Of a stretch of DNA of 41,087 bases, positions 1 to 27,756 are shown in pieces. The position numbers and the translations under genes were made by a program. The stretch comes from an uncultured Porphyromonadaceae bacterium (lineage in GTDB: Bacteria > Bacteroidota > Bacteroidia > Bacteroidales > Muribaculaceae): positions 1-41,087 of the forward strand of contig CAMWXI010000004.1 of NCBI GenBank assembly GCA_947178175.1. Direction: 5' to 3'. A model generated the notes under the pieces. That model searched no databases, was not told where the DNA came from, and saw only the letters and a list, made by a program, of their open reading frames with translations. Each line of letters starts with the position of its first letter. Position 1 is the first letter of the stretch.

Positions 1-5
1 CGATA

Positions 6-3000
6 ATGGAGGTCCGGACGTTCGATATGCTGGTTTATCATCCCGGGAGCGAGACCTATCTTCCGATGTCGGAGCTGACGGGAGAGGGTGTCTTCCGCAC
101 CCTCGCAGACGGGAGTGAGGAACTTGACGGTTCGGGAATGCCATTACTTAAGGATGAATTGTCAACCGCCCTCTATTCAAATTTTGATGCTGACAGCGAG
201 GGCTTCATCAATATCAATAATCTCGGCTCATACAGAGTTGCGCGACGTGGGGAAAACGGTGTGTCGGAGCCTGTCGAGGCCTTCCGTCTTCTCGTAGGGC
301 GATGGTTGCCGATGCCGATGTTTGAATGTAGTGATTCGGGAAGCACTATAGATTCTCCTGAGGGATGGTGCAGAATGAAGATAGAGAGGATAGGTGAGGG
401 TGTAAAAAAGGGGGAGGAGCGTTTTCGTCTTATCTGGGCGTTTGACACCACACTTTCCGAAGACCCGTTAGACACGATGCAACCCTACTTCTATGAAGAA
501 GAGGAGAGTGAGAAACGGTTCAGGTTGTGCAACTACCCTTATGCAATGCTTAAATTCCTATCCACGGATGCCGACGGCTATTCCGGTTTCAGCGACTATC
601 TGGCATCGTTGCTTGAGATAGACCCGGTGAAAGACGGATATAAATATTTAGCTTATTATATCTATCTGGTCAATTTCATAAGACTGAAGGGTGGGTCACC
701 GGAAGTTACGCTCCATAATCCGCCTGAAGATAAGGATATTCCGGTGGATATGGTGTTGGATATCGGCAACTCGCGCACCTGCGGAGTGCTTTTTGAGGAT
801 GGTGACTTTACGAGGGCAGAGATGTTGGAGCTCAGGGATCTGACCCATCCGGAAAGAGTATACAATGAGCCGTTTGATATGCGTCTTGCTTTCCGCAAGC
901 CTGACCTCGGCAACGACATCCCCGGTATGCCTGATATGTTCAACTGGAAGAGTTTCGTACGCTTGGGCAGGGAAGCGGCCGATCTGATTTACAGTACCAT
1001 TGACGCGGAGGGGTTGTCACGGCGCACCACCAACTATTCCTCTCCGAAGCGATATTTATGGGATGAAGCTGCTTTTGACGGAGTCTGGGAGTTTCTGACC
1101 ACGGATGAAGACCCTTCGAATGTGAGATTATCCGGGAATGTATATATCCCCGGCCTTAGTGAACTGTTTAATTCCCGCGGGGAATATTTAGGTTACGTTC
1201 CGGCAGTGGAGCGGGAGTTTGACGATGCGCCGGCAGCCTTCAGCCGATCGTCACTTATGACGTTTGTGATGCTTGAAATCTTCATGCAGGCCTTATCGCA
1301 GATAAATTCACCCCGTTTCAGAAACCGACATGGCGACATAGATCTTCGCAGGGTCCTGAGGAATGTGATTATCACATGTCCTACAGCGATGCCTGTAAGT
1401 GAACAGATACGTTTGCGCCGGACGGCGGCAGATGCGGCTCATGCGTTGCACAAGGAATTGAATTCTCCAAGGATAGAAGTTATACCCTCGGTGGAATCCC
1501 TGACAGCCGGAGATTCATTTGATGTAAGCAAGCGCAGCTGGAGTTATGACGAAGCATCATGTTGTCAGCTTGTGTATCTCTATGCGGAGTTAGCACAGCG
1601 ATATGAGGGAGAGATAGAGAAGTTCTTCGAACTTAAGGGGCACCGGCGTCCTGAGTTTGCGGAACAGGGATATGACAGGCCCTCTCTGACGATAGGCACG
1701 ATAGATATCGGTGCCGGCACTACCGACATAATGATATGCTCATATCAGTATGAAGGGAAAGAGAAGCCGGTGCTTCGTCCGGTACCCTTGTTCTGGGATA
1801 GCTTCTATCAGGCCGGCGATGATATATTGCGGGCTATAGTACAGAATCAGGTAATAGAGGGTAAGTATTTGGAATTGCCCGGTAGCGGGAATATCACTTC
1901 GGCACTGACAGCACGCCTTCTGCAGATGGAAGTTTCGGAGATTGAGAAGATTCCTGGAGTTGCGGGAAGCGAGGTGCTGAGTTCGAAAGCACGCGACCTG
2001 CACAGAATCTCCGACCCCGAGGAGAATCGGAATGCAAGACGCAGGTTGGCGGCAAACATAGTTCATGCCTTCTTCGGGGAAGATTCGGCCTTAATGAGTT
2101 TCAGCGACCGCCGCACGCGGGTAGATTTCAACACCCAGATTTCTCTTCCCTTGGCACAATTCTTCATGGAGGAGTTGAGACGGGGAAATCCCGCAAAGAG
2201 TTTCAGTTTCGAGGAGATATTCGGCAGGGTTAGGCCGTCAGCTAAGTTGCTTGACAGATTTGCCGGGCATTTTGGTTTCCGTTTTGAGGAGCTCGGCTGG
2301 CGCTTTGAGCCGGAGGAGACGGCAGAAATTGTGAAGGGAGTGATGGAGCCGCTGATGCGACAGCTGGCTATGGTGGTCTATGCCTACGATTGCGACATCC
2401 TTGTGCTTGCCGGACGCCCGACGTCCCTCAATGCAATAACCGACCTCTTTATCAAATATCTTCCCCTGACGCCTGACCGACTGGTGCGACTCAATAATTA
2501 TAGAGTAGGGAAATGGTTCCCCTTCGCTGACGGACAGGGATATTTTCATGACCAGAAGGCTGTGGTGGCTGTAGGGGCGATGGTAGGACATATAGCCTCG
2601 CATGAAGGATTCAACGGAATGTGGCTTGACTTCACGGAGATGAAAAAGAAGATGCATTCCACGGCACGATATATGGGTATCTACCGTTCAGGGCAGAATA
2701 GTGTTGGGGAGAGTTTACTGAGTCCTGTAAAATCCTCGGTGACATTGGAACTACACACATTCCCGACATTTATCGGTTGCCGTCAATTTGATTCAGAAAA
2801 ATATCAGGCACGTCCGGTCTACGGGATTTTCAATCATACTTCAAAAAATATGCTGAGGATTACTTTGAGCCGGAGTTATCACGAGGATCGTGAGACATTG
2901 ACTCTGGAGGAGGTGACAGATGAAGATAGAAATCCGATAGCCCGCAAAAATGTGGAACTAAAGCGCATGAGTCTTGCCGACGATGGTAAATATTGGCTTG

Positions 3001-3038
3001 ACAAAGGAGAGTTTAATCTTTCAGTTATCGGGAAGTAG
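6..3038 (+). CDS. srfB: SrfB-like actin/Hsp70-fold ATPase
   Basis: A 1010-residue protein with the nucleotide-binding signatures of the actin/Hsp70/hexokinase superfamily: a phosphate-1 motif DIGNSRT near residues 252-258, a phosphate-2 motif DIGAGTTD near 568-575, and an adenosine-type LVLAGRPTS near 799-807. Length, wide spacing of these motifs and the directly following SrfC-like gene fit the 'virulence factor SrfB' family (PF07520), whose biochemical role is not established. It has no signal peptide or membrane span, so it is probably cytoplasmic. The ATG at base 6 is the first visible start, but the frame stays open to the window edge, so a start further upstream cannot be excluded. It is the first visible gene of a ten-gene operon. 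Inferred role: ATP-driven conformational switch or chaperone-like engine of the complex. Family assignment is fairly firm; function is not. Confidence 0.72.
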   Translation: MEVRTFDMLVYHPGSETYLPMSELTGEGVFRTLADGSEELDGSGMPLLKDELSTALYSNFDADSEGFININNLGSYRVARRGENGVSEPVEAFRLLVGRWLPMPMFECSDSGSTIDSPEGWCRMKIERIGEGVKKGEERFRLIWAFDTTLSEDPLDTMQPYFYEEEESEKRFRLCNYPYAMLKFLSTDADGYSGFSDYLASLLEIDPVKDGYKYLAYYIYLVNFIRLKGGSPEVTLHNPPEDKDIPVDMVLDIGNSRTCGVLFEDGDFTRAEMLELRDLTHPERVYNEPFDMRLAFRKPDLGNDIPGMPDMFNWKSFVRLGREAADLIYSTIDAEGLSRRTTNYSSPKRYLWDEAAFDGVWEFLTTDEDPSNVRLSGNVYIPGLSELFNSRGEYLGYVPAVEREFDDAPAAFSRSSLMTFVMLEIFMQALSQINSPRFRNRHGDIDLRRVLRNVIITCPTAMPVSEQIRLRRTAADAAHALHKELNSPRIEVIPSVESLTAGDSFDVSKRSWSYDEASCCQLVYLYAELAQRYEGEIEKFFELKGHRRPEFAEQGYDRPSLTIGTIDIGAGTTDIMICSYQYEGKEKPVLRPVPLFWDSFYQAGDDILRAIVQNQVIEGKYLELPGSGNITSALTARLLQMEVSEIEKIPGVAGSEVLSSKARDLHRISDPEENRNARRRLAANIVHAFFGEDSALMSFSDRRTRVDFNTQISLPLAQFFMEELRRGNPAKSFSFEEIFGRVRPSAKLLDRFAGHFGFRFEELGWRFEPEETAEIVKGVMEPLMRQLAMVVYAYDCDILVLAGRPTSLNAITDLFIKYLPLTPDRLVRLNNYRVGKWFPFADGQGYFHDQKAVVAVGAMVGHIASHEGFNGMWLDFTEMKKKMHSTARYMGIYRSGQNSVGESLLSPVKSSVTLELHTFPTFIGCRQFDSEKYQARPVYGIFNHTSKNMLRITLSRSYHEDRETLTLEEVTDEDRNPIARKNVELKRMSLADDGKYWLDKGEFNLSVIGK

Positions 3039-3070
3039 GGTAATATAAAATTGAGCATAGAAAATGTGCC

Positions 3071-6016
3071 ATGAATATGAAGAACAGGATAGAACGGAAG
3101 ATAGAGAGTGTTAATGAATCAATGAACTGGCTCCGTGAAAATGAGCCGGAGCATTATGCGTCCCGCTTCGGGGAATTGATAGAGGAGCGTCGTCGGCTCC
3201 GACGTCTGAGCAGGGCTTTGGCGGAGAAGCCGGCCATTGCTGCTTTCGGAGAGTCACAGAAGGGGAAGTCATATCTTATCGGAAATCTTCTTCAGAAGGA
3301 TCATAAGCCGTTTATGGTGCGTTCCGGAGAGAACGGGGAGGAGGTGAATTTCGTAGCGAGTGTAAATCCTATCGGCAATAAGAAAGAGGCAACGGGCGTC
3401 GTGACACGTTTCACGAGCTTCACATCTGATGATGAACGATATGACGAGCGTTATCCGGTGATTGTGAAATTACTGACGGCATCGGAGTTAGGTACAATCT
3501 TAGGTGACGGTTACTATAACGATATATCGGATTTCCGTTCATATACCATAGAAGAGTGTAATTCCATAGCAGAGGGGCTCCAGCAGCGTTACGGCAATCG
3601 GAGCGCACTGCACAGGAGTCTGATGAACGCAGATGATGTGATGGATATGCGGGAATATTTCAAAAATTTCTCGGGTGCAGCCACACGCAATATGCGTCAT
3701 TCCGAATACTTCACCACCGTTGCTGAGATAGCAGATCGTTTAACGGGGGAGGAGATAGTGGATGTGTTGAAATATCTTTGGCATGAGAATGAAGAGATAA
3801 CCGCCTTGTTCCGGCGTCTCATAAGATTGTCAGAACGTCTTAAAGGGGCAAAAGAGGTGTATGCAACCTTGGAATCCGTGAGGCATTATGGAGACAACCG
3901 CAACACGTGTATGAGTGTGGACTGTCTTAATGAGCTGGATGATGACACACCGCAGCGACTGATGGATATCTATCTGAAGGATGGGACTTCAGGGACTCAT
4001 GAGAAGATAGAGAATGTTGCCAAATGCGAGTTGAGCGCCTTATGTGCCGAGGTGATTTTCAAGGTAAGAGAGCAATATCTGTCGGGGAAAGAATCTTATT
4101 TCACGGAGGGTCATACCGGTCATGGTGGCGAGATACGCCCGCAGACTGCCGGACTTCTGTCAGAGAGTGTCAGCAAAGACTTGCTGAAAGAGGTTGATTT
4201 GTTAGACTTCCCCGGCGCCCGAAGCAGGTTGAAGCTACGCGAAAGTTTCCTCAACCGCAAGGATGAGGAGGCCGGTGCATCCAATGTGGTTCAGATGCTG
4301 CTGAGAGGGAAGGTAGCCTTTCTGTTCAATAGTTATAATGAAAACAGGGGAATAAATATCCTCTTGTTCTGTCATGACGGCGAGCAGCCGGCAGTGACCG
4401 ATATGTATAACCTTATAGACTCCTGGGTAGGGAAATATGTAGGGACTACACCGGAAGGGAGACGCGGGACGATAGATTCTTACGGAGGAATCTCTCCATT
4501 ATTTGTGGTAGGCACCAAGTTTAATGTCGACATGATCGAGAGCAAGGAGTCGGAGGAGAATAATGAGAGTGCGCTTCAGCAGCGTTGGGACGGAAGGTTT
4601 GAGAAGGTTCTGCACCGTCAGGTTTTCAAAGGTTCAGACGTGAAATGGTTTGGCAACTGGGAGCGTGAGGGTGAGAGCTTCAAGAATACCTATCTTTTGC
4701 GGGATTATAAATTTTCAGATTGCAGCAGTTCCGGAAATAACCTGTATGAGGGTTATGACCTCAATGATGAGCATCCGCAGGAAGAGCGAATGAAGTTGAC
4801 AGAGGAGTTTTATGAGCGTTTGCGTCGTACTTTTGAGGAGAACGAATGGGTGAGGAAATTTTTCCGTAATCCGGCATTGTCATGGGATGTGGCGGCCACA
4901 CGCAATAATGACGGCTCACTCTTCATTATTGAGAATCTGAGGAATGCATCACAAAGTGCTGTTCCGGCACGTGCCAGGATAATGGAACGTGAGATGGATG
5001 CGGCCGTGAGACGTGTAAAGGGAATCATGGAGACTTATCATGTGGATGAAAATCTTGACCGTATTCTTGAGAATAATATCCGGAAAGGTATGGCTGTGAT
5101 GAGAGAGCTGGACTTCTCCTGCAACACTGACAATTATTTCTTCGGACACCTTCTGCAGGCTATGATGATGACCGAAACCGAGACCTTGGAATTTGTGCAT
5201 AAGAAGATTCAGAGTCCGGAACTCATCGGGGAGACCAATGACTGGAAAGAATATGAACTGATAAAAGAGAGGTGTGACGAATTCCGGGGTTGTCCCGACG
5301 AGGATTCAAAATGGGACAGGCTTCAGAAGGTGTATTACTTCCGTGACAGGGAAGATGCACGAAGTTATCTTCAGCGACGCGGTGTGGACGAGAAGGTATT
5401 ATTCAGTGGAGAGACAAGAAGGAAAAGTAATTCTGCCGTGATATCGGCAGATGTGCTTGACCATTGGACCGGCCGGTTAGTCTCACGGAGATTCCGCGGG
5501 ACTGTGATAGGGGAGAGCGGGTTTGACGAATCAGTGCTTTCCGATCTGATAGAAAATCTGCGGAATGTGGCGGAAAAGTCAGGACTTATCCGAAAGATGG
5601 AAAAATTGATATCCCCCTATGTGGATGTGGTGAATGTAGCCAACGTCAATGAGGGGTTGGTAGCAGACATACTGGCTGACGCAATAAATGATTTTGTGAC
5701 CGATTTTGGTTTTGAGATGCTTGACGACGATAAGCGTAGGAAGGCCTTGAGTGTGGTGGCACAGACACCGTTTGGCGATTTTCTTAACCGGGAAGAGCCG
5801 CGACATGGCGACTTCACGGAGGAGGAATTGACAGAACTTTTCACCCGTATGTCTGATCCTGAGAGCGGAGCGATGACCCCCTCGTTCAGCAATCGTTATT
5901 ATGACTGGCTGGAGAAGATGTTTATAAGCTTTGTCGCACATTCAGAAATTCCGGAATATGACAGAATAGCGAATGAGCGACTCGGTAAGGTCATTGAAAA
6001 CTTGGAAGCGAATTAG
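3071..6016 (+). CDS. srfC: SrfC-like large P-loop GTPase
   Basis: A 981-residue protein that begins with a basic helical region (residues 1-52), then a Walker A/G1 motif GESQKGKS at about 60-67. A G3-type DFPG lies near 379-382 and a G4-like TKFN near 483-486, so more than 300 residues separate G1 from G3. The rest is mostly helical and highly charged. This layout and the position 32 bases after a SrfB-like gene match the SrfC/putative virulence factor family (PF10139), distantly dynamin-like. No membrane span is visible. It probably acts in the cytoplasm with SrfB as a paired ATPase-GTPase module. The start at 3071 (Met-Asn-Met) has a nearby alternative two codons later. Function is unknown; the GTPase call rests on the motifs. 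Confidence 0.68.
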   Translation: MNMKNRIERKIESVNESMNWLRENEPEHYASRFGELIEERRRLRRLSRALAEKPAIAAFGESQKGKSYLIGNLLQKDHKPFMVRSGENGEEVNFVASVNPIGNKKEATGVVTRFTSFTSDDERYDERYPVIVKLLTASELGTILGDGYYNDISDFRSYTIEECNSIAEGLQQRYGNRSALHRSLMNADDVMDMREYFKNFSGAATRNMRHSEYFTTVAEIADRLTGEEIVDVLKYLWHENEEITALFRRLIRLSERLKGAKEVYATLESVRHYGDNRNTCMSVDCLNELDDDTPQRLMDIYLKDGTSGTHEKIENVAKCELSALCAEVIFKVREQYLSGKESYFTEGHTGHGGEIRPQTAGLLSESVSKDLLKEVDLLDFPGARSRLKLRESFLNRKDEEAGASNVVQMLLRGKVAFLFNSYNENRGINILLFCHDGEQPAVTDMYNLIDSWVGKYVGTTPEGRRGTIDSYGGISPLFVVGTKFNVDMIESKESEENNESALQQRWDGRFEKVLHRQVFKGSDVKWFGNWEREGESFKNTYLLRDYKFSDCSSSGNNLYEGYDLNDEHPQEERMKLTEEFYERLRRTFEENEWVRKFFRNPALSWDVAATRNNDGSLFIIENLRNASQSAVPARARIMEREMDAAVRRVKGIMETYHVDENLDRILENNIRKGMAVMRELDFSCNTDNYFFGHLLQAMMMTETETLEFVHKKIQSPELIGETNDWKEYELIKERCDEFRGCPDEDSKWDRLQKVYYFRDREDARSYLQRRGVDEKVLFSGETRRKSNSAVISADVLDHWTGRLVSRRFRGTVIGESGFDESVLSDLIENLRNVAEKSGLIRKMEKLISPYVDVVNVANVNEGLVADILADAINDFVTDFGFEMLDDDKRRKALSVVAQTPFGDFLNREEPRHGDFTEEELTELFTRMSDPESGAMTPSFSNRYYDWLEKMFISFVAHSEIPEYDRIANERLGKVIENLEAN

Positions 6017-6022
6017 AGCCTG

Positions 6023-7591
6023 ATGAAAAAGATACCTTTTGGAAGAGATAGGAAAGGGATTCGCAGACCTTTCTGGCAGCCGTGGGGAGCATGGGGATAT
6101 CTGCGGAAATTATTGTTGTTTCTGCTCCTTATCGGGATATTGATATTGTTGCTGAGTCTGTTCAGACGTTGTGGGAATGACAGGGCCACGGTCATTCCTG
6201 ATGATATTCTTCATCCGGATGTGGAGGAGGGAGCTTATCCTGAGGATGACAGTCTGATCGGTGGCAATCTTTCCGACCCGGGAGAATTTTTGCCCGGCGA
6301 GGATAACAATTTCCTGATTCCAATAGACGAGGGGGATGTGCGGACCGATCCGGAGGATGGGCGCAGGTTTGTAGCCGACAAGTTGAACGTGATGCTTGAT
6401 TCAGAATCGGATGATTCCACCTTCAGGGAATGGTCCGAGCGTTTTAAGACCGCCTATCCGGGGGATGAATATAAAGTGACATATTACGACACCCTGACCA
6501 AGCTTATGCAGATTCAGGTGCCCGGTTCGGAGGCGGAGAAGATTATGGCGGAGTTGCCGTCAAAGATTCCGGAAATTAAATTCTTTGTTTTCCCCGAGGG
6601 GTTGATGGGAGAATGGTCGAAACCCTCGGACCCGGCCTTCTCCAAGGTGGATTTAAGTTGGTATTTCCCGGCGATAGAGGCATATTCCGCCTGGGATGTG
6701 ACCATGGGTGACCCTAATGTAACGGTAGCGGTGGTAGACACTTATTTTGATTTGCGCCATCCGGAACTCAGTGGAGGAAACAAAGTGAGGAAACCATATA
6801 ATTTAGTTAAACGTAACCGGGACGTAATGGTTCCGCCGACCGCCGGGGGAAATTCCGCGCAGAAGGCTATGCGGAGCCATGGCACCTCTGTGGCGTGTCT
6901 GGCAGTCGGAAATGCCGGAAATCGCGCAGGGGCTTCCGGAATAGCACCTAAATGCTCACTGATGCCTGTGGCTATGGAGAATCATCTGACTTCGCTGGTA
7001 ATGCTCCAGGGATTGTTATATAGTATCTATCAGGGTGCTGACGTGGTGAATATCTCAGCCGGAGCTATGTATGGACAGAATGTAGCGCAAATGAGCCCGA
7101 GGGAACAGGTGGAGCTGTCAAAGAACATAGGTATTGAGGAACAGAGAGTATGGGACTACGCTTTCAGGCTTGCCGACGAAAGGAGAGTGACAATAGTATG
7201 GGCTGCCGGAAACGAGAACATATTCACAGCTCTCGACCCCTCGAAAAGGGGTAAGAATACAGTGAAGGTGTCGTCGACCGACCGCCACGGTAAGAAGGCG
7301 GAATTTTCCGATTATGGAAACTTCCCGCAATGGAATGTGTATGAGTCAACTGTGTCCGCTCCCGGGGTGGGTATATTCAGTGCCATTCCCGGAAAGACTT
7401 TTGGACTTCAGGATGGCACGAGTTTTTCGGCGCCGATAGTGGCGGGAGGCATAGCTTTGCTTAAGAGTAAGAAAAGGAATCTCACTAATCAGGAGATAAT
7501 CAAGCTTCTGCGTTCCACCGGGAAGCCGGTTGGAGAGAGGTCGACAATAGGGCCGATCCTTCAATTGCGCAGGGCTTTGGATAAGATATGA
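6023..7591 (+). CDS. membrane-anchored subtilisin-like (S8) serine protease
   Basis: A 522-residue S8 peptidase with the full triad: Asp239 (VVDTYFD), His286 (SHGTS) and Ser467 (GTSFSAP), plus the oxyanion Asn in VWAAGNEN. A strongly basic N-terminus (about 28 residues) precedes one hydrophobic span (about 29-48), so the positive-inside rule puts the catalytic domain in the periplasm on a tether. Residues of about 110-195 look like a subtilase pro-domain, suggesting self-activation. The gene starts 6 bases after the preceding stop, so it is translated from the same message. Inside this operon it probably processes a partner or an outside target. Protease identity is secure; substrate and regulation are unknown. 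Confidence 0.85.
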   Translation: MKKIPFGRDRKGIRRPFWQPWGAWGYLRKLLLFLLLIGILILLLSLFRRCGNDRATVIPDDILHPDVEEGAYPEDDSLIGGNLSDPGEFLPGEDNNFLIPIDEGDVRTDPEDGRRFVADKLNVMLDSESDDSTFREWSERFKTAYPGDEYKVTYYDTLTKLMQIQVPGSEAEKIMAELPSKIPEIKFFVFPEGLMGEWSKPSDPAFSKVDLSWYFPAIEAYSAWDVTMGDPNVTVAVVDTYFDLRHPELSGGNKVRKPYNLVKRNRDVMVPPTAGGNSAQKAMRSHGTSVACLAVGNAGNRAGASGIAPKCSLMPVAMENHLTSLVMLQGLLYSIYQGADVVNISAGAMYGQNVAQMSPREQVELSKNIGIEEQRVWDYAFRLADERRVTIVWAAGNENIFTALDPSKRGKNTVKVSSTDRHGKKAEFSDYGNFPQWNVYESTVSAPGVGIFSAIPGKTFGLQDGTSFSAPIVAGGIALLKSKKRNLTNQEIIKLLRSTGKPVGERSTIGPILQLRRALDKI

Positions 7592-7622
7592 CGAACAGGA
7601 TCGAAAAGAAAACAGGATATAG

Positions 7623-8603
7623 ATGAAGAGTAAGAAGAAAGATGGAGTGTCAATAGCCGATTTGGTGACACTGTCGGGGGTGTTGGTATCAACAGTCACA
7701 GCCGGACTCGGGATGTATTATATCACTTTTGATTTGTTGACAGCCGTGTTGTGCGCGTTAGGATTGGCGGCCCTGGAGGGATGCCTGGTGTGGCTTATTG
7801 TGAAATTCAAGCAGAAGGATTCATCTTTTAGAAACTGGCGAATTGCGGAAATTTCATTGTTGGTGGTGATGGGAGTTGTGTTGGCAGCAACCGTTATACC
7901 GGTGTCGGCTTTCTTGGGGGTGTCGGGTCACAAGGGAGAGATACAGCAGAGCGCACATAGGGAGATAAAGCAAATACGGGATGGAATCTCAAATTTCCAG
8001 CAGCAGGAGCGGGAAGCGTTGACAGTGACCTGCAGCGGGTTGAAGAATATGTTGAGCAGTCATGCTTCACGCACAGTTGGACTGATAAATTTTGTGAGCA
8101 AATATGGAATAACAAGTGAGCAAAGGCTCACTGATTATAAGTCCCAGCAGGAACAACTCATCAACGATATGAGCATTAAATCGGGCACAGGTGTCGGAAC
8201 TGAGATGTATAAACCGACATGGGACAGGGAACTCGAGGAGATAGAAAGGATAGTGGAAAATTGGAATTTCCTGATGATTCCGAGTGCGGTGACTCGTCTG
8301 GAGGAGGTGAATGAGCAGGTGGAGGCAGTGAGTACAATCATGAATCGTGAGCTGATATATCCTGTGATAAAAAGGGAACATAACACCTATCATATAGTAG
8401 AGATGAGACAGGATGTGAGGCAATACACGGGAGAGGTGAATTTTCGCGCGGCCTTTAACGGTATAGCGAAATGCAGTCTTCCGGGAGTGGGACTGACCGT
8501 TTTGACAGGCTTTTTTGTATTGTTTAAATATCTCGTTTGTCCCCGGTCGCGGAGAGTGGGGATTTCCAGGAATAAGAGTGGAGATTTCGGAAGATTGTTA
8601 TAG
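7623..8603 (+). CDS. multi-pass membrane protein with long helical extracytoplasmic region
   Basis: 326 residues of no family I recognise. Hydrophobic spans are visible at about 13-33, 37-60 and 76-99, followed by a polar, Gln/Glu-rich, probably coiled-coil stretch (about 105-280) and a last span near 288-308 with a basic tail (PRSRR). Three spans from a basic N-terminus place the long helical region outside the cytoplasmic membrane and the C-terminus back inside. It sits 31 bases downstream of the protease gene, after an A-rich leader. Inferred role: membrane scaffold or platform that couples the protease and other periplasmic parts to the cytoplasmic NTPases. Confidence 0.6.
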   Translation: MKSKKKDGVSIADLVTLSGVLVSTVTAGLGMYYITFDLLTAVLCALGLAALEGCLVWLIVKFKQKDSSFRNWRIAEISLLVVMGVVLAATVIPVSAFLGVSGHKGEIQQSAHREIKQIRDGISNFQQQEREALTVTCSGLKNMLSSHASRTVGLINFVSKYGITSEQRLTDYKSQQEQLINDMSIKSGTGVGTEMYKPTWDRELEEIERIVENWNFLMIPSAVTRLEEVNEQVEAVSTIMNRELIYPVIKREHNTYHIVEMRQDVRQYTGEVNFRAAFNGIAKCSLPGVGLTVLTGFFVLFKYLVCPRSRRVGISRNKSGDFGRLL

Positions 8604-8622
8604 AAAAGATATTTAATGGACT

Positions 8623-10476
8623 ATGAATGAACGTCAGTTGGAGACCCTTAACGCAAGATGTAATATCATGCCTTTGGGTCAGATAAAAAAATATATAGCT
8701 TCCGGTCAGGTTACCCTCAATGAATTGACTGCATTGAAAGAGGAGCGTCGCAGGGAACTTGAACGTATGTTGAACGATATGCCCAATCCGGAGGAGACCG
8801 GTCAATGGGGGAGAATTCAGGACTCTTTGCCGCGTATTGAAGACAGCATGGAGGGAATATCCGACATATTATCCCGTTTAGACGAATATATAGTTAGATG
8901 GAAAGATTCGCGCCCCAACGGAAATCATCTGGAAGAGGCTATGAGGTTGCGGGAAGACTATGAGATAAAACTCCGGAAGAAATCTCAGGCGGAGGAAGAA
9001 GCGGATTGGGAAAGAGTCTGGAATGAATTTGACGGAAGTACCGAAGCCCTTCTCAGTCATAGAGACCGTTATCCATATTCAGCCTATATGGAAGATATAG
9101 ATGACGGTGTGTGGAATAATCTGGTGATGAGCAAGGGATTGTCTGGAGCCTGTGAAGATTATATCCGGGAATTTCCTGACGGACTTCATGTGAAAGAGGT
9201 GGAGGATATCAGGAAAGCGGCAGAAGAATGGGAGGATGTCAAATATTACAGGGAATGTGCGGAGGTGAAGGAATATATCTCGAATCACTCCGGTTCCCCG
9301 TTTCTGCATGAAGCGGAGGAATTGCTCAATGAGCTGAAGAGGGAGGAGATAGAGAAGATGAAGGGGCAGGCCTCAGCCTATGAGTCATCCTATCTTTTGC
9401 GACTGGTTGACAGCGGTGTTTTCTCGGAACGCGAGTTAGTGGTCCAGGGAGTGATAGAACGTGGAGATATTCAGAATATCCGCAATATAGAGGAAACGCG
9501 CCGCACCCTTCCCGATATTCTTACCGAGATAGCAAACTGCCGGAAGGAGTGTCTTGCAGATGCAACAGATGTTTTTTTCTTTGGAATCCCGTCAACGGGG
9601 AAAAGCTGTATATTGATGGGACTGACAGGAACCGATACCCTGAACTATAATGCAGTGAAGGGAGGGGGTCCGTATGCGGCGGCGCTTAATCAATATCTTG
9701 TCGGAGGAATCACTGTCGGTCAGACTCCGGGCGATTTCATAGCGACAATACCGGCGGAGATAGTGCTTGAGGATTCTGTGCATCCTCTGAATCTCGTGGA
9801 AATGTCGGGAGAGGAGTTTGCTTTCAAGCTTGCAGGAAACGAGGAGGGTAAGGTCAGCTTCGAGGATATGGGAACCGGCGCTTCACAGCTTCTGCGTAAT
9901 TCCAACCGGAAGGTGTTTTTTATAATCATCGACCCGACAACGATGACAATATCGTTCAATCATGATGTGCCGGAAAGAGATGCCGACGGGAATGTAAAGC
10001 TTAATGCCGACGGGAATCCCATTATGATGATTCGCAAGTTTAATATCAATCAGAGAATCACACTCAAGAAGCTGGTGGATGTGCTGATGGATCCGGACAA
10101 TAAGGATGTAATGGAGAAGGTTGATGCCATCAACTTCATTGTCACCAAGGCGGATGTGTTAGACAGGAATCAGAATGGGAACGACAGGGAGAGCGAGGCA
10201 TATGAGCGCTTTGTAACCAATTTCGGACAGGAGCTTAAAAGGTTGATAAAGTTCTGTGCGGCAAACGGGATCAATATCACTTCAGATACCAAGACTAACG
10301 GTCATCCACGACTCTACACATTCAGTCTCGGACGTTTTAAGGTCGGTGGATTTTTCACATACGACTCATATGATTCCGAGAAACTCGTGCAGGTCATAAA
10401 GGAGAATACAGTCTCCGAGAAAGATGAGAATTGGTGGGGTAAGTTCCTCGGAATGTTAAACAGACCCTTGTTCTGA
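8623..10476 (+). CDS. P-loop GTPase with helical-repeat N-terminus
   Basis: A 617-residue protein. The C-terminal half is a GTPase-like domain: G1 GIPSTGKS at 321-328 and a G4-type TKAD at 508-511. The expected DxxG of switch II is replaced by VEMSGEE near 392-398. The first 300 residues are helical and charged, with repeated units of the type Y(I/L)xxxPxxxxxxEx, which suggest a TPR-like protein-interaction surface. There is no membrane segment. It is unrelated in detail to the SrfC-like protein of the same operon, so the locus encodes two different GTPases. The lost G3 Asp suggests altered hydrolysis or a partner-activated switch; that is inference. A GTPase-like fold is well supported, exact family not assigned. 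Confidence 0.62.
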   Translation: MNERQLETLNARCNIMPLGQIKKYIASGQVTLNELTALKEERRRELERMLNDMPNPEETGQWGRIQDSLPRIEDSMEGISDILSRLDEYIVRWKDSRPNGNHLEEAMRLREDYEIKLRKKSQAEEEADWERVWNEFDGSTEALLSHRDRYPYSAYMEDIDDGVWNNLVMSKGLSGACEDYIREFPDGLHVKEVEDIRKAAEEWEDVKYYRECAEVKEYISNHSGSPFLHEAEELLNELKREEIEKMKGQASAYESSYLLRLVDSGVFSERELVVQGVIERGDIQNIRNIEETRRTLPDILTEIANCRKECLADATDVFFFGIPSTGKSCILMGLTGTDTLNYNAVKGGGPYAAALNQYLVGGITVGQTPGDFIATIPAEIVLEDSVHPLNLVEMSGEEFAFKLAGNEEGKVSFEDMGTGASQLLRNSNRKVFFIIIDPTTMTISFNHDVPERDADGNVKLNADGNPIMMIRKFNINQRITLKKLVDVLMDPDNKDVMEKVDAINFIVTKADVLDRNQNGNDRESEAYERFVTNFGQELKRLIKFCAANGINITSDTKTNGHPRLYTFSLGRFKVGGFFTYDSYDSEKLVQVIKENTVSEKDENWWGKFLGMLNRPLF

Positions 10477-10509
10477 TAAAATAATATTAAAAAGAAAAAC
10501 AGGAAGAAG

Positions 10510-12342
10510 ATGAAAGTTCCTTTGATGAGATATGGCAATCCTCAGTCACAGGCCGGATATACCTCACTTTTCTATATAAATAATCCCCAATTTACGGCAC
10601 CGTTGAATTTGTCGCCGGGAGGAATGGGAAATAATGAATATTATTTTCAGGTCAGCATAAGCAAGGGCTACACTAATATTGTGTTGATAGAGAATAATGT
10701 GAGGAGTGAGGGTGCCGCGCGTATGGGTGTGTTGAAGATAGCCACTGCCTTTCCGGTGGGATATAAGCTTGCGGATAACAAGAGTCCGTATGATTTGCTG
10801 AAGGATGTCAGGGATGTATTTGTCAGTAAATATATGGAACCGCTTCGCGGAGTGCCGGGCCATCGTTTTCTCAAGGAGTTCCCCGGTCCGGAGGCATTGA
10901 TAGAGGCAGTGGACAGGTATTCGTTGGTGGAAGCGGGAATCCCCCACAGAGTGATGGAGGGAAGAGAGTCTGTTTTTCTTCGTACGGACAGAATCAGAGA
11001 GTTTCTCAGGGATTTTCAGTATCCTGAACTCACAGGATATAAAGACGTTATAGTGGCGGCCGAGGGGGATTATATGCCACGTATAGAATTACAGGAGATT
11101 CCGCGCAGACCAAAATGGCGTCTTTCGGTCAATGGCATTGCTCAGAAGTGGCCCTCACATGTGAGAGATCCGTTTATGGAAATCGTGGAGGTGAGTAAAG
11201 AGTCAGGTTCCCCTTATTATACATATTCTGCTGTCACTGTGAATTTGAGAAGTCTTCTGGAAAATGGAGGCAACGATAAGGTAAAGGTGGACACCACTAC
11301 AGAAACTGTGTGTGTCACACTTGAGAAAATACCGGTGGAGAGAAAACTTCGCCTTCGGTTTAGGGGGGAAGGGAGCCGTGAAACCCTGATGCGCGGATTG
11401 CACTTTAATTTGGAAAAACGTGAGATTTATCCCGACAGGGATGGAAATCTTCGTCTTAACGGTACGGATATTGATAAGCCCGTGAGAGTTAAATATGAGG
11501 GAAAAGATTATAAAATAGAGAGCGAAACGGTGGGGGATGAAATAGTCATAACCTCCACGCGCAGGAATTCCAGGAGTAAGTCAAAACGCTTCATATCCGA
11601 TTATAATACGTCAGGAGGAGATGGAGGAAACAATATTTCCGGGAATGGCTGGGGAAGTATAGGCAGAGAGGGCGCCGGAAGAGAAGAGAACTCCGGTATA
11701 TCAGATTTTTGGCAACATCCGGCAGTTCTCGGTGGAGTAATCTTTGTGGCTCTCATTATCGGATATGTTATAGGTTGTTTCTTCCCGTTTACATCCTTTT
11801 TCAAGGGGGAGAAAGAGGAGGCTGCCGAAGTTGTAGCGGTGGAAGATTCTCTTAATAAGGAAGAACAGGATTATGAAGTTAAGGAGGAGGTATGGTTTTC
11901 CACTGCTGAGGGATGGGAGGAGATACGCAACCTTCTGAAGCGGGACAATCTGAGTTTTGATGTTGTGAATAAGACCGCCGACCGAATCTCATCCCTCAGA
12001 CGAGACACGACAGAGCTGGCAAAGGCAGCGCTGGATGAGAATAAAGAGTTGGTGGACAGTGTTATGGGCTATAAAGCTGTGGTGGATGCGCTGGTCAATG
12101 GAGAAGTAGGCACTATCAAAAAGAGTGAGAAATTTCTCAATCCGAATCACAAATGGATGGTTTGGGAGATTCACACCGGCTGGAGGGACAGTAATGGAGA
12201 ACATTACTATTACAAAGAGGGGTGTGACATAGCAACCAGGGAATTCAAGGATAAGGCAGGTGCTTATAAGAGTTTCAAGGAGCTGGAAACCCTTCACTTG
12301 GGAAAGAAGGAGAACAAGGATGACACTCGACTTAAAAAATAA
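10510..12342 (+). CDS. single-span operon protein of unknown family (central membrane anchor)
   Basis: 610 residues. The N-terminal 380 or so residues look like a folded mixed alpha/beta domain without signal peptide, then comes a Gly/Asn/Ser-rich linker (about 355-400), one hydrophobic span (about 404-425), an acidic stretch and a helical C-terminal domain (about 460-610). The large N-terminal domain is therefore most likely cytoplasmic and the C-terminal part periplasmic. It directly follows the GTPase gene, so a GTPase-partner role is possible. It could be a distant relative of the GTPase-associated proteins (GAP1-N type) of bacterial conflict systems, but I cannot show that from sequence alone. 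The start follows an AAAAAGAAAAACAGGA leader. Confidence 0.55.
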   Translation: MKVPLMRYGNPQSQAGYTSLFYINNPQFTAPLNLSPGGMGNNEYYFQVSISKGYTNIVLIENNVRSEGAARMGVLKIATAFPVGYKLADNKSPYDLLKDVRDVFVSKYMEPLRGVPGHRFLKEFPGPEALIEAVDRYSLVEAGIPHRVMEGRESVFLRTDRIREFLRDFQYPELTGYKDVIVAAEGDYMPRIELQEIPRRPKWRLSVNGIAQKWPSHVRDPFMEIVEVSKESGSPYYTYSAVTVNLRSLLENGGNDKVKVDTTTETVCVTLEKIPVERKLRLRFRGEGSRETLMRGLHFNLEKREIYPDRDGNLRLNGTDIDKPVRVKYEGKDYKIESETVGDEIVITSTRRNSRSKSKRFISDYNTSGGDGGNNISGNGWGSIGREGAGREENSGISDFWQHPAVLGGVIFVALIIGYVIGCFFPFTSFFKGEKEEAAEVVAVEDSLNKEEQDYEVKEEVWFSTAEGWEEIRNLLKRDNLSFDVVNKTADRISSLRRDTTELAKAALDENKELVDSVMGYKAVVDALVNGEVGTIKKSEKFLNPNHKWMVWEIHTGWRDSNGEHYYYKEGCDIATREFKDKAGAYKSFKELETLHLGKKENKDDTRLKK

Positions 12343-12356
12343 TAAAAAGAACAGAG

Positions 12357-13202
12357 ATGAAGGTTGTTAAGTTGATAATCATCGCACTGGGAATTTTGGT
12401 TTTAATCGGTGTGGTTTTTATGGTTAAGGATATGGTGACTCCTAAGCTGAATCCGGAGCACCGGCAGCATGTCAAGGAGCTGCAGGAGGGTATAGAGCAA
12501 TTCTGGAGTAAGTCACCCGGATGGAATGGGAATCAGTTTGAAGACGATTTAAGTGGTATCCGGTCAGCTTTAAACAATCAGTTCATCTCAGAGGAAGAAG
12601 CCGGTGTGTGTGAAAATCAGCTTGGAGAGCTTGCCCTGCGGGCTACTTGTGAAGCACTTGACCGTTTATATGCCAATCCGGATTGCAGAATTTCGGAGGT
12701 AAAGAAAGAGTATGACGGAATTCTCAGGATAGAGAAGATGGAAGGGTTTGCCGGTGATAGCGACATTCATACTCAGCAGGAGATATTTAAACTTTACAAC
12801 GATGCTTTGCAGTTTAAAAAGAAGGGACTGTCGGCATCTCCCGGTTTCTCATTTCCTGATAAGTGGAATAATTTCGCCGAGTTAGTGTCGAATTATAGGT
12901 CACAGGCCTCAAGTATCCGTAATAATGAATATTGGATTCGTCTGAGCGATATCAGGGAGATAAACGGTCCGGTGGAGGAATCGGCGGTAGAGGCAAGGAT
13001 TCAGAAGGCCCGATCAGCATTTGCATCTGCTCTTGCAGAGCAGATAGAAAGGTCTTACTCCGGGAGAAGCCGCACAGTGGAGAATAAGCGCTTACTACAT
13101 TCGGCGATTGTGAAATATCAGAATCAGTTTCCCGCCAACCCCGGTCTGGATGGTTTTGAGCAGGATTTCATGTTGGAAACGGATGAGGGAATTTTTGACT
13201 AA
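12357..13202 (+). CDS. N-terminally anchored helical protein of unknown family
   Basis: 281 residues. One hydrophobic segment at about 4-24 is followed by a wholly helical, charged domain with several Trp residues. The short basic N-terminus suggests the anchor stays uncleaved with the helical domain outside the cytoplasm, though a cleaved signal cannot be excluded. The gene is 14 bases after its neighbour and preceded by an A-rich AAAAAGAACAGAG leader. No recognised family or active-site motif. The context suggests a structural component of a membrane complex. Confidence 0.5.
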   Translation: MKVVKLIIIALGILVLIGVVFMVKDMVTPKLNPEHRQHVKELQEGIEQFWSKSPGWNGNQFEDDLSGIRSALNNQFISEEEAGVCENQLGELALRATCEALDRLYANPDCRISEVKKEYDGILRIEKMEGFAGDSDIHTQQEIFKLYNDALQFKKKGLSASPGFSFPDKWNNFAELVSNYRSQASSIRNNEYWIRLSDIREINGPVEESAVEARIQKARSAFASALAEQIERSYSGRSRTVENKRLLHSAIVKYQNQFPANPGLDGFEQDFMLETDEGIFD

Positions 13203-13208
13203 AGGATT

Positions 13209-14492
13209 ATGGCAAAGGTAAAACAGGCGTCAATCAAGGAGATACATTGGAAGATACCGACCTGGAATCAGGGAGAGGGTGCCAATTCCCGGCTTCAGGG
13301 ATTGCTGGGATCTGACTCACGATATTTTGCCCGGGTCAGTGTAGGCCCGACAGCGGTTTTCTGGAATCATCCCCGTCCGGGATGGAAAGCACTTTCGCAG
13401 GCTCCGGACTATGAGAGAGGAGCTGTGGAAGCGGAGTTGCTCAAAGTCAGTAAACTGTTGACGGAGAAAGCCGGGAAATATGGTGAGATGCTGCTTACCC
13501 GCCCTAATGATGATTATGTGTTTTATCAGATTTCGCCGGAAGGGTGTGTGGAAATTCTGTTTTCAGGGTGGGGCTATGATAATTATAAGAAAGCTACCGG
13601 ACGGGCGTTCGTAGACAAGAGGGTGCAGCCGTCAACCGGTGAGGCACGCCTTTTGTTTCTGCACGACGGCAGCCCCGTAGGGTATCGTGATTTTGAGGTT
13701 CATCTCCCTGGCGGAAGAGTCAATATCCTTCAGACTGATGGAGATGGTGTCTATCGTCTGCCGAGTGTGGTGGTGGGAAAAACTCTTCATGTTAAGGATA
13801 TTCCGACAGCGAGGGAATTTGACCTGACATGGAAAAAGGGGGAGACAGACTATCCCTTGGATGTGACACGCAAAGCTACGTTGTGTGTGACAGTCAGAGA
13901 AAACGGAGAGCCGACGGATACTTATCCAGTAAGAGCAGTGATAAACGATAAGATCTATCCTGTCTCACTCTTTAATGGAGAGGGTGAGATTCAGGTTGCC
14001 GTGTTGGATTCCGATGAGATAAGGGTGGAATGCAATGAAGAGATGCAGGTCCTGACAATTCCATATGGGGAAGAAAGGAGGACTATAGAGTTTGACTTCA
14101 CAAAAGAACGGGAAGTTCCTCCCTTACCCTCAAAGTATATAACGGTTACGGTCTTCAATAAAGATGATAAGCCAATGTCAGGTGCAAAAATTGTGTTGCG
14201 ATCAAATGAGAGTGTAGTCGAGGGGATGCTCGACGGCTCTGGAAAGATTCGATTTAAGGAAGAATCGTTCAAGCCGGGCAATCCGATTAATACTACCATA
14301 GTTTCATCAGAGACAACATATCCAGAACTGACCTGGTGTATTGATGAAGGGGAGTATGAGTATCTTCTGAAAGAGGAAACTGATGAAAAGAGGAGTATAT
14401 GGAAAACCCTCTGCATGATAGTGGGAATAATGGCTCTCACTGCACTGGCGGGGTTGATTCTAAGGTTTTTAATTCCGATGTTAATATATTGA
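13209..14492 (+). CDS. tail-anchored protein with beta-sandwich repeats
   Basis: 427 residues. An N-terminal domain (about 1-130) of unknown type is followed by about three beta-rich modules (about 135-210, 215-300, 305-390) with patterns such as DGDGVYRLP and MLDGSGKIRF, typical of Ig-like or CarboxypepD_reg/CNA-B-like beta-sandwiches. A single hydrophobic segment ends the protein (about 397-427), as in tail-anchored proteins. With no signal peptide, the beta modules should be cytoplasmic unless an unusual export route is used; that is odd, since such domains are usually extracellular. Starts 6 bases after the previous stop. Family unknown. Confidence 0.5.
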   Translation: MAKVKQASIKEIHWKIPTWNQGEGANSRLQGLLGSDSRYFARVSVGPTAVFWNHPRPGWKALSQAPDYERGAVEAELLKVSKLLTEKAGKYGEMLLTRPNDDYVFYQISPEGCVEILFSGWGYDNYKKATGRAFVDKRVQPSTGEARLLFLHDGSPVGYRDFEVHLPGGRVNILQTDGDGVYRLPSVVVGKTLHVKDIPTAREFDLTWKKGETDYPLDVTRKATLCVTVRENGEPTDTYPVRAVINDKIYPVSLFNGEGEIQVAVLDSDEIRVECNEEMQVLTIPYGEERRTIEFDFTKEREVPPLPSKYITVTVFNKDDKPMSGAKIVLRSNESVVEGMLDGSGKIRFKEESFKPGNPINTTIVSSETTYPELTWCIDEGEYEYLLKEETDEKRSIWKTLCMIVGIMALTALAGLILRFLIPMLIY

Positions 14493-14499
14493 GAAAGAG

Positions 14500-14763
14500 A
14501 TGTTGGCGTTGATATATATTTTTTTATTACTGAACCTGATCAGCTGGATGCTTGTGGGATATAACAAGCATTTGCAAATCTATGGACGCGACCGTTCAAA
14601 TGAAGTGTGGATAATGATTTTAAGCATAGTATTAGGCTCGTTCGGAGCGTTATGCGGGATGGTTCAGTTCAGGAATGAGCTGACACGCAGCGTGGGGAGG
14701 TGGATAGCAGTTTTGGCATGTGTTCAGGTTTTTTTATTGGCAATTATTATTTATCTTACGTAA
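14500..14763 (+). CDS. DUF1294-like small membrane protein
   Basis: 87 residues with three hydrophobic stretches. The centre matches the DUF1294 pattern: a GYNK box near residues 19-22 (usually YDK), an R-x-x-E (about 33-36), then LGSFGALCGMVQFRNEL, corresponding to the family's GGxxGAxxGMxxFRHKT with the basic His-Lys changed to Asn-Glu. DUF1294 proteins are small inner-membrane proteins of unknown role. Starts 7 bases after the previous stop, in the same operon. The divergent motif suggests an operon-specific variant. Confidence 0.55.
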   Translation: MLALIYIFLLLNLISWMLVGYNKHLQIYGRDRSNEVWIMILSIVLGSFGALCGMVQFRNELTRSVGRWIAVLACVQVFLLAIIIYLT

Positions 14764-14776
14764 ATAAGGACGAGGA

Positions 14777-15448
14777 ATGAAAGCGCAAAAGCGGGTCTTG
14801 ACAGGGATTTATGCCGGATTGATATTACTGTTGTTGCTACTGTCGTTGCATAGATGTGACGGAGGATGCAGCCGCAGTGATAGAGGTGTTGAAGAGTATG
14901 AGGATGTAGATAATGTAAATGAAGACAGTGTCGATTCTACAGTTGAGAATGAGGTGGAGGTGCCGGATACGTTGCCCGGAGAGAGCGGGAATTTGCGGGT
15001 GGCTTTGTTGTGGGATCATCCCGGCGACATGGATCTGCACGTGGTCCAACCCAACGGGAGATGTGTGGACTTTGCACGTATGAGAGACAGACAGACCGGA
15101 GGCCGTAAGGATATCGACAATGTGTTCGGAGGCCGGGGAAGTGCTGAGAATATCTATTGGGAGAAGCCCGGTAATGGAGAATATGAGATATTTTTGAATT
15201 ATTATCCCCATCCGGAGCGCTCTTCGTCAGATAGCGAGGGAACGTGTCTGGTGATTGTGGAATGGAAGGATGACCGGGGGCATGAACAGGAAAAGAAATT
15301 TAAGGTTCAGATGACTCATGCCGGACAATGGTCGGCTATCACTAAAATGAAATATACTGACGGAAAGGTGATTTTTGAAAAAGGAAGCAGAAGGTGTCCT
15401 GAAAAGGAGGAATGTGACGGAAGAAGAAAAGCTGATCAGCCGATATAA
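14777..15448 (+). CDS. membrane-anchored DUF2135/YfaP-like protein
   Basis: 223 residues: a short basic N-terminus, a Leu-rich hydrophobic segment (about 10-26), an acidic linker, and a beta domain (about 70-200). The beta domain shows the series LLWDHPGDMDLHVVQPNG, a DNVFGG segment, ENIYW and GEYEIFLNYY, as in the DUF2135/YfaP family. The Asp-rich loop may bind metal. The Cys residues after the hydrophobic segment (HRCDGGC) do not form a clean lipobox, so it is better read as an anchored periplasmic protein. Last gene of the operon, 13 bases after its neighbour. Function unknown. Confidence 0.58.
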   Translation: MKAQKRVLTGIYAGLILLLLLLSLHRCDGGCSRSDRGVEEYEDVDNVNEDSVDSTVENEVEVPDTLPGESGNLRVALLWDHPGDMDLHVVQPNGRCVDFARMRDRQTGGRKDIDNVFGGRGSAENIYWEKPGNGEYEIFLNYYPHPERSSSDSEGTCLVIVEWKDDRGHEQEKKFKVQMTHAGQWSAITKMKYTDGKVIFEKGSRRCPEKEECDGRRKADQPI

Positions 15449-15516: not shown

Positions 15517-15621
15517 CTTGTTATAAATAGTGCAGATGGCATATAGTCAGGAACTGAAATTTATAAGTTGTTGAGTCTCCTGAAATTTGATGAGAACAGG
15601 TTCTCTATAAACTTAAGAATT

Positions 15622-16665: not shown

Positions 16666-16736
16666 AATACCCTTGATGCATATTAAAGTACAAATCTGAA
16701 TATCTTTTTTTTTCGTTTTCTCTTAAGACTTAATAT

Positions 16737-17732: not shown

Positions 17733-17741
17733 AATCATATT

Positions 17742-18548: not shown

Positions 18549-18580
18549 TCGGGATTGGAAGATAGAAGCGGCGGCTTCGA

Positions 18581-18862
18581 TTATTTCTTCTTTTTGAAAA
18601 AGTCGTTATATACTTTTATTCCGAAGACAATCGCAGAACATGAGAATGTGATTAGGTTGGTGATAAAGAGCGGCATATTGTCGGTCAGCAATCCCTGGAT
18701 GCAGAAAAATATCGCACCAAATCCCATTAACAGAAATGTTGGAAGAGCAATTCCGTCAGTGTCGCGGGTTCTGATAGTGTAGATAGCTTGCGGGAGATAC
18801 CCGAGAACCATACAGATAGCTGCCAGATAGCCAAAAATAAGAGTCCATATCTCAGTGCTCAT
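18581..18862 (-). CDS. SemiSWEET-type PQ-loop sugar transporter
   Basis: 93 residues from the ATG at 18862, a length typical of bacterial SemiSWEETs; an in-frame ATG at 18916 would add 18 polar residues and is less likely. Three hydrophobic segments form one triple-helix bundle, with the PQ-loop motif GYLPQ (Pro24-Gln25) at the end of the first helix and a basic C-terminus ending in four Lys. Such proteins dimerise to make a sugar uniporter. Convergent to nudC and divergent from the M24 peptidase gene. Confidence 0.83.
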   Translation of the reverse strand: MSTEIWTLIFGYLAAICMVLGYLPQAIYTIRTRDTDGIALPTFLLMGFGAIFFCIQGLLTDNMPLFITNLITFSCSAIVFGIKVYNDFFKKKK

Positions 18863-19109
18863 AGTTATAGTGGGGTTAGGGATTTTATGAATTTCTGAAA
18901 GATTAACAAATTTCATAGTCCGAGAGTTTAGACGATTCCGTTGTGGAGCAGAGCCTGAGTAGAGGGAACAGGAGAAATTTGGCGGGTAATATTATAATTG
19001 CTATCTTCGTTGAGATAATTGCCCCCGGTCTCTGTTGTAAAGCCCGGCATTCGGCAACAGCAGGGCCTTTTCAGCCTAATCCCATGGCATATGGAGAGTA
19101 TAGCAATTG

Positions 19110-19117
19110 TAAATTTG
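19110..19117 (+). promoter_or_regulatory. possible -7 element before the M24 peptidase gene
   Basis: TAAATTTG matches the Bacteroidetes -7 box, but no TTTG lies 19-21 bases upstream, and the implied transcript would begin only about 8 bases before the ATG. It sits next to one arm of an inverted repeat (ATAGCAATT at 19100-19108). A weak call. Confidence 0.3.
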
Positions 19118-19131
19118 AATAGAAGAATATT

Positions 19132-21758: not shown

Positions 21759-21830
21759 TTTATGTTAAGAGGGGGATTCTCGGGAGAGAATCCAGTGAAT
21801 GATAAAATAACTTAAAAAAGGGTAGAACTA

Positions 21831-27754: not shown

Positions 27755-27756
27755 TC

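What the first reader, a model, noticed from the sequence alone, without database searches (positions are those of the whole stretch)
6..15448. Ten-gene operon combining SrfB/SrfC-like NTPases, a second GTPase, a tethered subtilase and five or more membrane proteins
Ten genes on one strand, gaps of 6-33 bases and no internal terminator imply one message and one machine. SrfB- and SrfC-like proteins are known families of unclear role. Here they sit with a periplasm-facing S8 protease, an unrelated GTPase, three single-span proteins anchored at different places, and DUF1294- and DUF2135-like parts. A membrane-spanning, NTP-gated proteolytic defence, conflict or envelope-stress system is plausible, but the function is inference.
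Basis: partly seen in the sequence, partly recalled or inferred. Interest (0 to 1): 0.85.

Follow-up and report, generated by a model that had tools for sequence, protein, structure and literature searches.

The report
Extended SrfABC membrane protease operon
A gut bacterium carries an operon that looks like an enlarged relative of the poorly understood SrfABC system: enzymes that use ATP or GTP inside the cell, together with membrane proteins that hold a protein-cutting enzyme on the outer side of the inner membrane, which suggests how this puzzling gene family may work.

Summary
The ten same-strand genes are real (gaps 6-33 bases), but gene 1 (SrfB) is cut by the contig edge: about 43 residues are missing, so 6 is a false start. 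Related loci show a seven-gene core (SrfB, SrfC, S8 protease, four-span protein, GTPase, large single-span protein, N-anchored protein) with a variable 3' part; all ten recur in order in 3 of 44 other loci read, a lower bound. Presence is patchy (36 of 297 family genomes, its own included). Catalytic motifs are conserved. New link: the cytosolic N-terminal domain of SrfA is fused to the protease in 20 of 38 S8 loci and carried by gene 8 in 17 of the other 18, this one included; gene 10 matches the outer domain of SrfA-like proteins of alphaproteobacteria. So this is an enlarged, partly split SrfABC system. Most likely (inferred) it is an NTP-switched assembly at the inner membrane that passes on an envelope signal and controls an outward-facing protease. 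Defence is not supported by 14 flanks tested, though one Runella plasmid copy lies beside BREX. A real new variant of a known, unexplained system.

The parts
1..3038 (+). g1, SrfB-like actin/HSP70-type ATPase, 5' end cut by the contig edge (listed ORF 6-3038)
   Evidence: PF07520 1.5e-168; DxGNSxT 39 of 39, DIGxGTxD 38-39 of 39 sequences of 800 aa or more; truncation
3071..6016 (+). g2, SrfC-like P-loop GTPase
   Evidence: PF10139 1.5e-110; GxSQxGKS, DxLDFPG, T482 and N485 in 45 of 45
6023..7591 (+). g3, S8 subtilase with one N-terminal span (residue 29); short form without the SrfA N-domain
   Evidence: PF00082 1.8e-37; Asp239, His286, Ser467 and Asn397 in 38 of 38 sequences of 450 aa or more; N-side more positive at 35 of 43 spans of the family
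7623..8603 (+). g4, four-span membrane protein (3 + 1 spans, large loop between)
   Evidence: spans at 9, 33, 74, 288; conserved position
8623..10476 (+). g5, GTPase with a long N-terminal region; DO-GTPase-like
   Evidence: G321, G326, K327, T368, G396, E397, K509, D511 in 25 of 25; DO-GTPase1 32.4 bits, cut-off 27, for relative L036; YfiO-type repeat hits in 4 of 25 members and none for the window protein
10510..12342 (+). g6, N-domain with longin/TagF-like fold, Ig-like domain, span at 400, helical C-domain
12357..13202 (+). g7, N-anchored protein
   Evidence: span at 3; cluster of 25 proteins in 25 loci
13209..14492 (+). g8, SrfA N-domain (about residues 1-150), further domain(s), C-terminal span at 400
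   Evidence: CarboxypepD_reg 0.0013, below cut-off; NCBI's SrfA model does not hit it directly
14500..14763 (+). g9, three-span DUF1294 protein
   Evidence: PF06961 28.4 bits, cut-off 25; spans 1, 36, 69
14777..15448 (+). g10, N-anchored domain like the outer domain of alphaproteobacterial SrfA-like proteins
   Evidence: A10 vs A9 97.4%, E 8.9e-12; span at 7

Best explanation
It is an enlarged, partly split SrfABC system. Shown by sequence: conserved order, intact motifs in SrfB, SrfC, g5 and the S8 protease, membrane spans in g3, g4, g6-g10, and the SrfA N-domain on g8. Inferred: SrfB and SrfC assemble on the SrfA N-domain (here g8) at the inner face of the inner membrane; g5 acts on the longin-like domain of g6 as a second switch; g4, g6, g7 and g10 form the membrane and outer frame that senses an envelope change or a surface partner; when triggered, nucleotide turnover rearranges the assembly and frees or positions the S8 protease to cut targets outside the inner membrane.
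For: SrfB-SrfC-S8-g4-g5 in 32 of 45 loci; S8-g4-g5-g6-g7 in 25. Motifs kept: S8 38 of 38, SrfB 38-39 of 39, SrfC 45 of 45, g5 25 of 25. SrfA N-domain fused to the protease in 20 of 38 S8 loci and on g8 in 17 of the other 18. NCBI's SrfA model, not built by me, hits the long S8 proteins of L039 (122.3 bits, 3.4e-35) and Runella (86.5 bits, 2.5e-24), two stretches each, both below its cut-off of 150. The N-domain also heads trypsin-like proteases and a vWA protein beside proteobacterial SrfBC. SrfA, B and C of Xenorhabdus form a complex (PMC6950479, abstract and first quarter). srfB/srfC with tagQ, ppkA and often tagRST, in all but one genome without a T6SS (PMC3608642 section 16). g6 resembles longin and TagF folds.
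Confidence: 0.4

Rival explanations
1. A defence or conflict system: infection or attack is sensed, the GTPases switch and the protease acts as effector, as proposed for GTPase-centred conflict systems.
For: DO-GTPase-like g5, membrane partners and exchangeable domains resemble the make-up of those systems (PMC7159879, sections 27-29 read); patchy presence; Runella plasmid copy behind BREX pglZ and brxL.
Against: No defence enrichment in 14 flanks against 14 controls; no GAP1 hit in Pfam scans of the ten window proteins or 15 g6 proteins; in PADLOC the only strong hit is the generic subtilase model.
Confidence: 0.22
2. A surface-behaviour machine (swarming, adhesion, surface protein processing): the protease matures or sheds surface proteins under SrfBC control.
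For: A Salmonella srfC mutant swarms poorly but swims normally (PMC4219756, passages); srfB/srfC in all human-associated but no environmental Deltaproteobacteria of one comparison (PMC3608642); the S8 domain has a match to the tethered T7SS mycosin, 110 bits, far below the cut-off of 278.75.
Against: No motility or adhesin family among the Pfam hits of the ten proteins; at least 20 same-genus genomes lack SrfC.
Confidence: 0.2
3. Part of type VI secretion control, since g6 looks like TagF and proteobacterial SrfBC loci carry Tag genes.
For: TagF-type entries among the best fold matches; Tag genes near srfBC.
Against: PF05943 sheath found in 0 of 23 operon-bearing genomes while one control genome rang; PF17541 also 0 of 23, but its controls were silent, so that test is inconclusive.
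Confidence: 0.05
4. A secreted or injected toxin complex, as claimed for Xenorhabdus SrfABC.
For: Cytotoxicity of SrfA, B and C on HeLa cells reported (PMC6950479, abstract and first quarter).
Against: No span was found in the window's SrfB and SrfC, several partners are membrane-anchored, and nucleotide motifs are kept; this fits a resident machine better.
Confidence: 0.05

Closest known systems
SrfABC operon (Salmonella, Xenorhabdus, Leclercia; SrfA-like variants in alphaproteobacteria)
   Same: SrfB and SrfC adjacent; SrfA N-domain present; a tethered serine protease with the same N-domain stands beside SrfBC in Mesorhizobium and Cereibacter
   Different: S8 instead of trypsin-like protease; SrfA parts spread over separate genes; extra g4-g7 with a second GTPase; no vWA, ABC transporter or SUMF1 gene in the ten
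GTPase-centric conflict systems (DO-GTPase/GAP1; Kaur et al. 2020, PMC7159879)
   Same: GTPase with Glu after the Walker B Gly, membrane partners, exchangeable domains, patchy presence
   Different: no GAP1 hit; SrfB/SrfC core instead; no zinc ribbon or FNIII hit in Pfam
T6SS threonine-phosphorylation control genes (TagQRST, PpkA) and TagF
   Same: such genes accompany proteobacterial SrfBC; g6 N-domain resembles the TagF fold
   Different: no kinase or FHA hit among the ten proteins; no T6SS sheath found
T7SS mycosin
   Same: membrane-tethered S8 protease facing outward
   Different: 110 bits against a cut-off of 278.75

Membership tests
SrfABC system | SrfB family protein | tested here: met
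   PF07520 563.3 bits, cut-off 27.1
SrfABC system | SrfC family protein next to SrfB | tested here: met
   PF10139 371.3 bits, cut-off 28.1; adjacent in 35 of 45 loci
SrfABC system | SrfA as one polypeptide (N-domain, span, outer domain) | tested here: not met
   NCBI's SrfA model hits none of the ten window proteins; N-domain on g8 by profile; long S8 of relatives 122.3 and 86.5 bits, cut-off 150
SrfABC system | heteromeric A-B-C complex | not testable with these tools
   reported for Xenorhabdus in PMC6950479 (abstract)
DO-GTPase system | DO-GTPase domain over curated cut-off | tested here: inconclusive
   window g5 no hit; L036 relative 32.4 bits, cut-off 27; 6 of 25 members hit DO-GTPase2 and 3 of 25 DO-GTPase1 at E<=0.1
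DO-GTPase system | conserved Glu in the Walker B region | tested here: met
   G396 E397 invariant in 25 of 25
DO-GTPase system | GAP1 partner | tested here: inconclusive
   no Pfam GAP1 hit; no GAP1 profile was compared directly
T6SS | contractile sheath protein in the genome | tested here: inconclusive
   PF05943 0 of 23 (one control rang), PF17541 0 of 23 (controls silent)
TagF/longin fold | longin-like fold in g6 | tested here: inconclusive
known anti-phage systems (PADLOC 2.0.0) | a specific model match | tested here: not met
   generic subtilase model 1.5e-14 on g3; next best LeoBC 0.001 on g6

The most novel reading that the evidence does not exclude
SrfABC systems are a general class of plug-in transmembrane switches: a SrfB/SrfC core reads or drives a set of proteins that share one cytosolic docking domain (the SrfA N-domain) but expose exchangeable outer domains (S8, trypsin-like, vWA, SrfA outer domain, others). 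The Bacteroidales version is an NTP-gated trans-membrane protease with a second GTPase switch on a longin-like partner.
Probability: 0.3. Interest if true: 0.8.

Novelty: new variant of a known kind. Interest (0 to 1): 0.58.

Why it matters
SrfB and SrfC are widespread 'virulence factor' families whose function PMC3608642 calls still unclear. The shared SrfA N-domain, its fused-or-split relation with an S8 protease, its presence on unrelated trypsin-like proteases, and the conserved membrane core give a concrete, testable picture: cytosolic NTPases controlling proteolysis outside the inner membrane. If right, these families would be read as a resident envelope machine rather than as a toxin or effector.

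Tried and rejected
Defence island: 14 flanks of 10 kb (12 upstream, 2 downstream; 112 ORFs of 100 aa or more) against 14 control stretches of the same contigs (104 ORFs): 8 PADLOC families against 28 at E<=1e-15, so no enrichment. The two sets of unrelated proteins were put through align_proteins only so that they could be scanned; those alignments (A6, A7) mean nothing.

Foreign base composition: operon GC 0.475, rest of window 0.468; no sign of recent import.

Insertion site: the gene after the operon matches in 26 of 31 genus genomes, its own included, 15 relatives at 67% identity or more. Of these 15, 13 stretches were taken; the script read 12 (L146 showed no such gene). None of the 12 has an ORF matching a window operon protein, and upstream genes differ; three of the 12 reach only about 0.3-3.4 kb upstream. 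The left edge of the operon is off the contig, so no empty site could be shown.

g6 as GAP1: no Pfam hit, not compared by profile. g6 against PDB sequences: six weak hits, best FliL 0.0043, the rest 0.06 or worse. g5 against single DO-GTPases by hhalign: 6.2% and 22.9%, the motif blocks align but not significantly. SrfA N-domain against g7 as negative control: 0.1%. No Pfam hit covers the N-domain in window g8, three trypsin-like or SrfA-like proteins or the Runella g8-like protein; in NCBIfam it is covered as part of NF040486.

Structures of g4 and of the SrfA N-domain were wanted but never accepted by the busy machine.

Printed record: search listings 10, 11, 22, 23, 70, 71 showed no title or abstract that joins SrfB/SrfC with a subtilase or DO-GTPase; the library holds open-licence PMC papers only, and lists were capped (20 of 37; 20 of 309).
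Full report
What is there. The window is the start of contig C4 of a 1.9 Mb, 205-contig draft genome, about 84% complete. Ten ORFs on the + strand fill it to 15448, with gaps of 6-33 bases. Pfam confirms SrfB, SrfC, an S8 subtilase and DUF1294; genes 4-8 and 10 have no match above cut-off. Gene 1 is incomplete: relative L076 has 43 more residues before the window's first, and relatives with a full start begin with a LIADSGIQF-like stretch.

How common. In samples drawn by the tool, SrfC matches occur in 36 of 297 genomes of the family, 15 of 247 of the order and 3 of 395 of the phylum, one of them below the family's cut-off; each count includes the window's own genome. Within the genus, 4 others have it and at least 20 do not, and the four carry very different copies (56, 54, 30 and 28% identity). 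So it comes and goes; transfer or loss was not decided, and base composition gives no hint.

Conserved core. I read 45 loci: the window, 14 loci from 13 of the 14 other hit genomes (G066 left out, contig 4.7 kb) and 30 loci from 30 of the 35 other hit genomes (G368, G378, G392, G470 and G538 not fetched). L030-L032 were dropped from counts (two are the same contigs as L076 and L077, one is a 3.6 kb fragment). SrfB and SrfC are adjacent in 35 of 45, SrfC is followed by S8 in 38, and SrfB-SrfC-S8-g4-g5 are consecutive in 32. Of the three others with SrfB-SrfC-S8, L086 has no readable g4, L094 ends at its contig edge and L096 has no recognised g4. In L037, L039 and L043 an ORF of about 330 aa stands between SrfB and SrfC. 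Seven loci show no S8 next to SrfC; L044 of these ends 1.1 kb after SrfC. With broader profiles 25 loci have S8-g4-g5-g6-g7 in order, some with an extra ORF, and the g6 families of the near and far types are related (98.1%, E 7e-14). The complete ten-gene order recurs in L079, L081 and L082, of another genus; many stretches end before the 3' part, so 3 of 44 is a lower bound.

Enzymes look active. The S8 triad and oxyanion Asn are kept in 38 of 38; SrfB nucleotide motifs in 38-39 of 39; SrfC motifs in 45 of 45 (after length filters of 450, 800 and 800 aa); g5 G1, G2 Thr, GE and K.D in 25 of 25 (a chosen set of 25).

The SrfA link. The profile of the S8 family unexpectedly hit SrfA-type proteins, two trypsin-like proteases and a vWA protein encoded beside proteobacterial SrfBC. 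Separate alignments confirmed a shared N-terminal domain ahead of the span: SrfA set vs long S8 98.7%, E 2.8e-16; long S8 vs trypsin-like N-terminus 97.6%, E 4.4e-12; SrfA set vs g8 93.5%, E 2.2e-7; long S8 vs g8 91.5%, E 8.7e-7; control vs g7 0.1%. NCBI's own SrfA model hits the long S8 proteins of L039 (122.3 bits) and Runella (86.5 bits) in two stretches each, in L039 best at the C-terminus, below its cut-off of 150. It does not hit window g8 or the Runella g8-like protein, so g8 rests on the profile comparisons. Of the SrfA set only the Leclercia protein passes the model (480.3 bits); the three alphaproteobacterial ones score 31.8, 76.7 and 36.6, over the N-domain. g10 matches the outer domain of these alphaproteobacterial proteins, 97.4%, E 8.9e-12, and not that of Leclercia SrfA.

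Counted at E<=1e-3 with two domain profiles, the N-domain sits on S8 in 20 of 38 S8 loci and on g8 in 17 of the other 18, including the window; L080 is the miss, and the L036 hit is weak (2e-4); four loci have both; the seven loci without S8 have none. Many of these sequences were in the profiles and match by construction, but the SrfA/S8/trypsin profile also hit eight g8 proteins that it was not built from, at 2e-4 to 9e-16 (L031, L036, L037, L039, L043, L076, L079, L096). The window's g8 was hit only by the g8 profile. The fused-or-split pattern is the best evidence that g3 and g8 work together.

Other bacteria. A Runella plasmid has SrfB, SrfC, S8 (1.3e-240), g4 (2.1e-26) and g5 (6.7e-50) in the same order, a 784-aa single-span ORF at the g6 position that the g6 profile did not match, and g7-like (1.6e-9) and g8-like (3.6e-55) genes, right after BREX pglZ and brxL. 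Cereibacter and Leclercia plasmids show SrfA-type, SrfB and SrfC genes followed by vWA, ABC ATPase, permease and SUMF1 genes; in Mesorhizobium and Cereibacter a trypsin-like protease gene precedes. PMC3608642 (section 16 read) reports srfB/srfC with a Hap-like gene, tagQ, ppkA and mostly tagRST in host-associated Deltaproteobacteria, only one of which has a T6SS.

Mechanism. Shown: co-occurrence, motif conservation, domain relations, membrane spans. Inferred: topology by charge (N-side more positive at 35 of 43 spans for g3, 12 of 15 for g7, 13 of 18 for g6 with the window's own g6 against, 7 of 18 for g8), assembly of SrfB/SrfC on the SrfA N-domain, a g5-g6 switch, and control of the protease. 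Trigger and substrate are unknown. Envelope signalling is preferred over defence because of the Tag-gene company elsewhere and the lack of defence neighbours in 14 flanks.

Verdict. The operon is real and conserved, a new variant of the SrfABC kind.

Noticed in passing
L114 (NZ_CP031031.1) 1764-35055: Runella sp. SP2 plasmid: Srf-S8-GTPase operon directly behind BREX pglZ and brxL on the same strand, with an M12 metallopeptidase gene downstream and a DDE transposase after it.
   Followed up: partly
L094 1-3531 (-): One ORF of 1177 aa reads from the S8 protease straight into the g4-like four-span region; a real fusion or a lost stop in a draft genome. It would clash with the inferred topology.
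   Followed up: partly
L099 12602-13303, L101 12527-13360, L105 6490-7200: Three loci have an extra ORF of 234-278 aa with two or three spans that matches the g5 profile just before g5, reminiscent of paired DO-GTPases, one of them membrane-bound.
   Followed up: no
L106/L183 (G568), L184/L192 (G1010): DO-GTPase pairs over the Pfam cut-off in two other Bacteroidia genomes; not checked for Srf genes nearby.
   Followed up: no
15568-31083: Most genes scanned after the operon are ordinary: PF03601, UbiA, NUDIX, M24 peptidase, polyA polymerase, PEPCK, LpxB, GH31; two of ten had no hit at 1e-5. tRNA-Pro and tRNA-Arg at 21870 and 39319.
   Followed up: partly
L040 10252-18485: A SrfC locus without S8 is followed by two related very large ORFs (1202 and 1540 aa) of unknown nature.
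   Followed up: no
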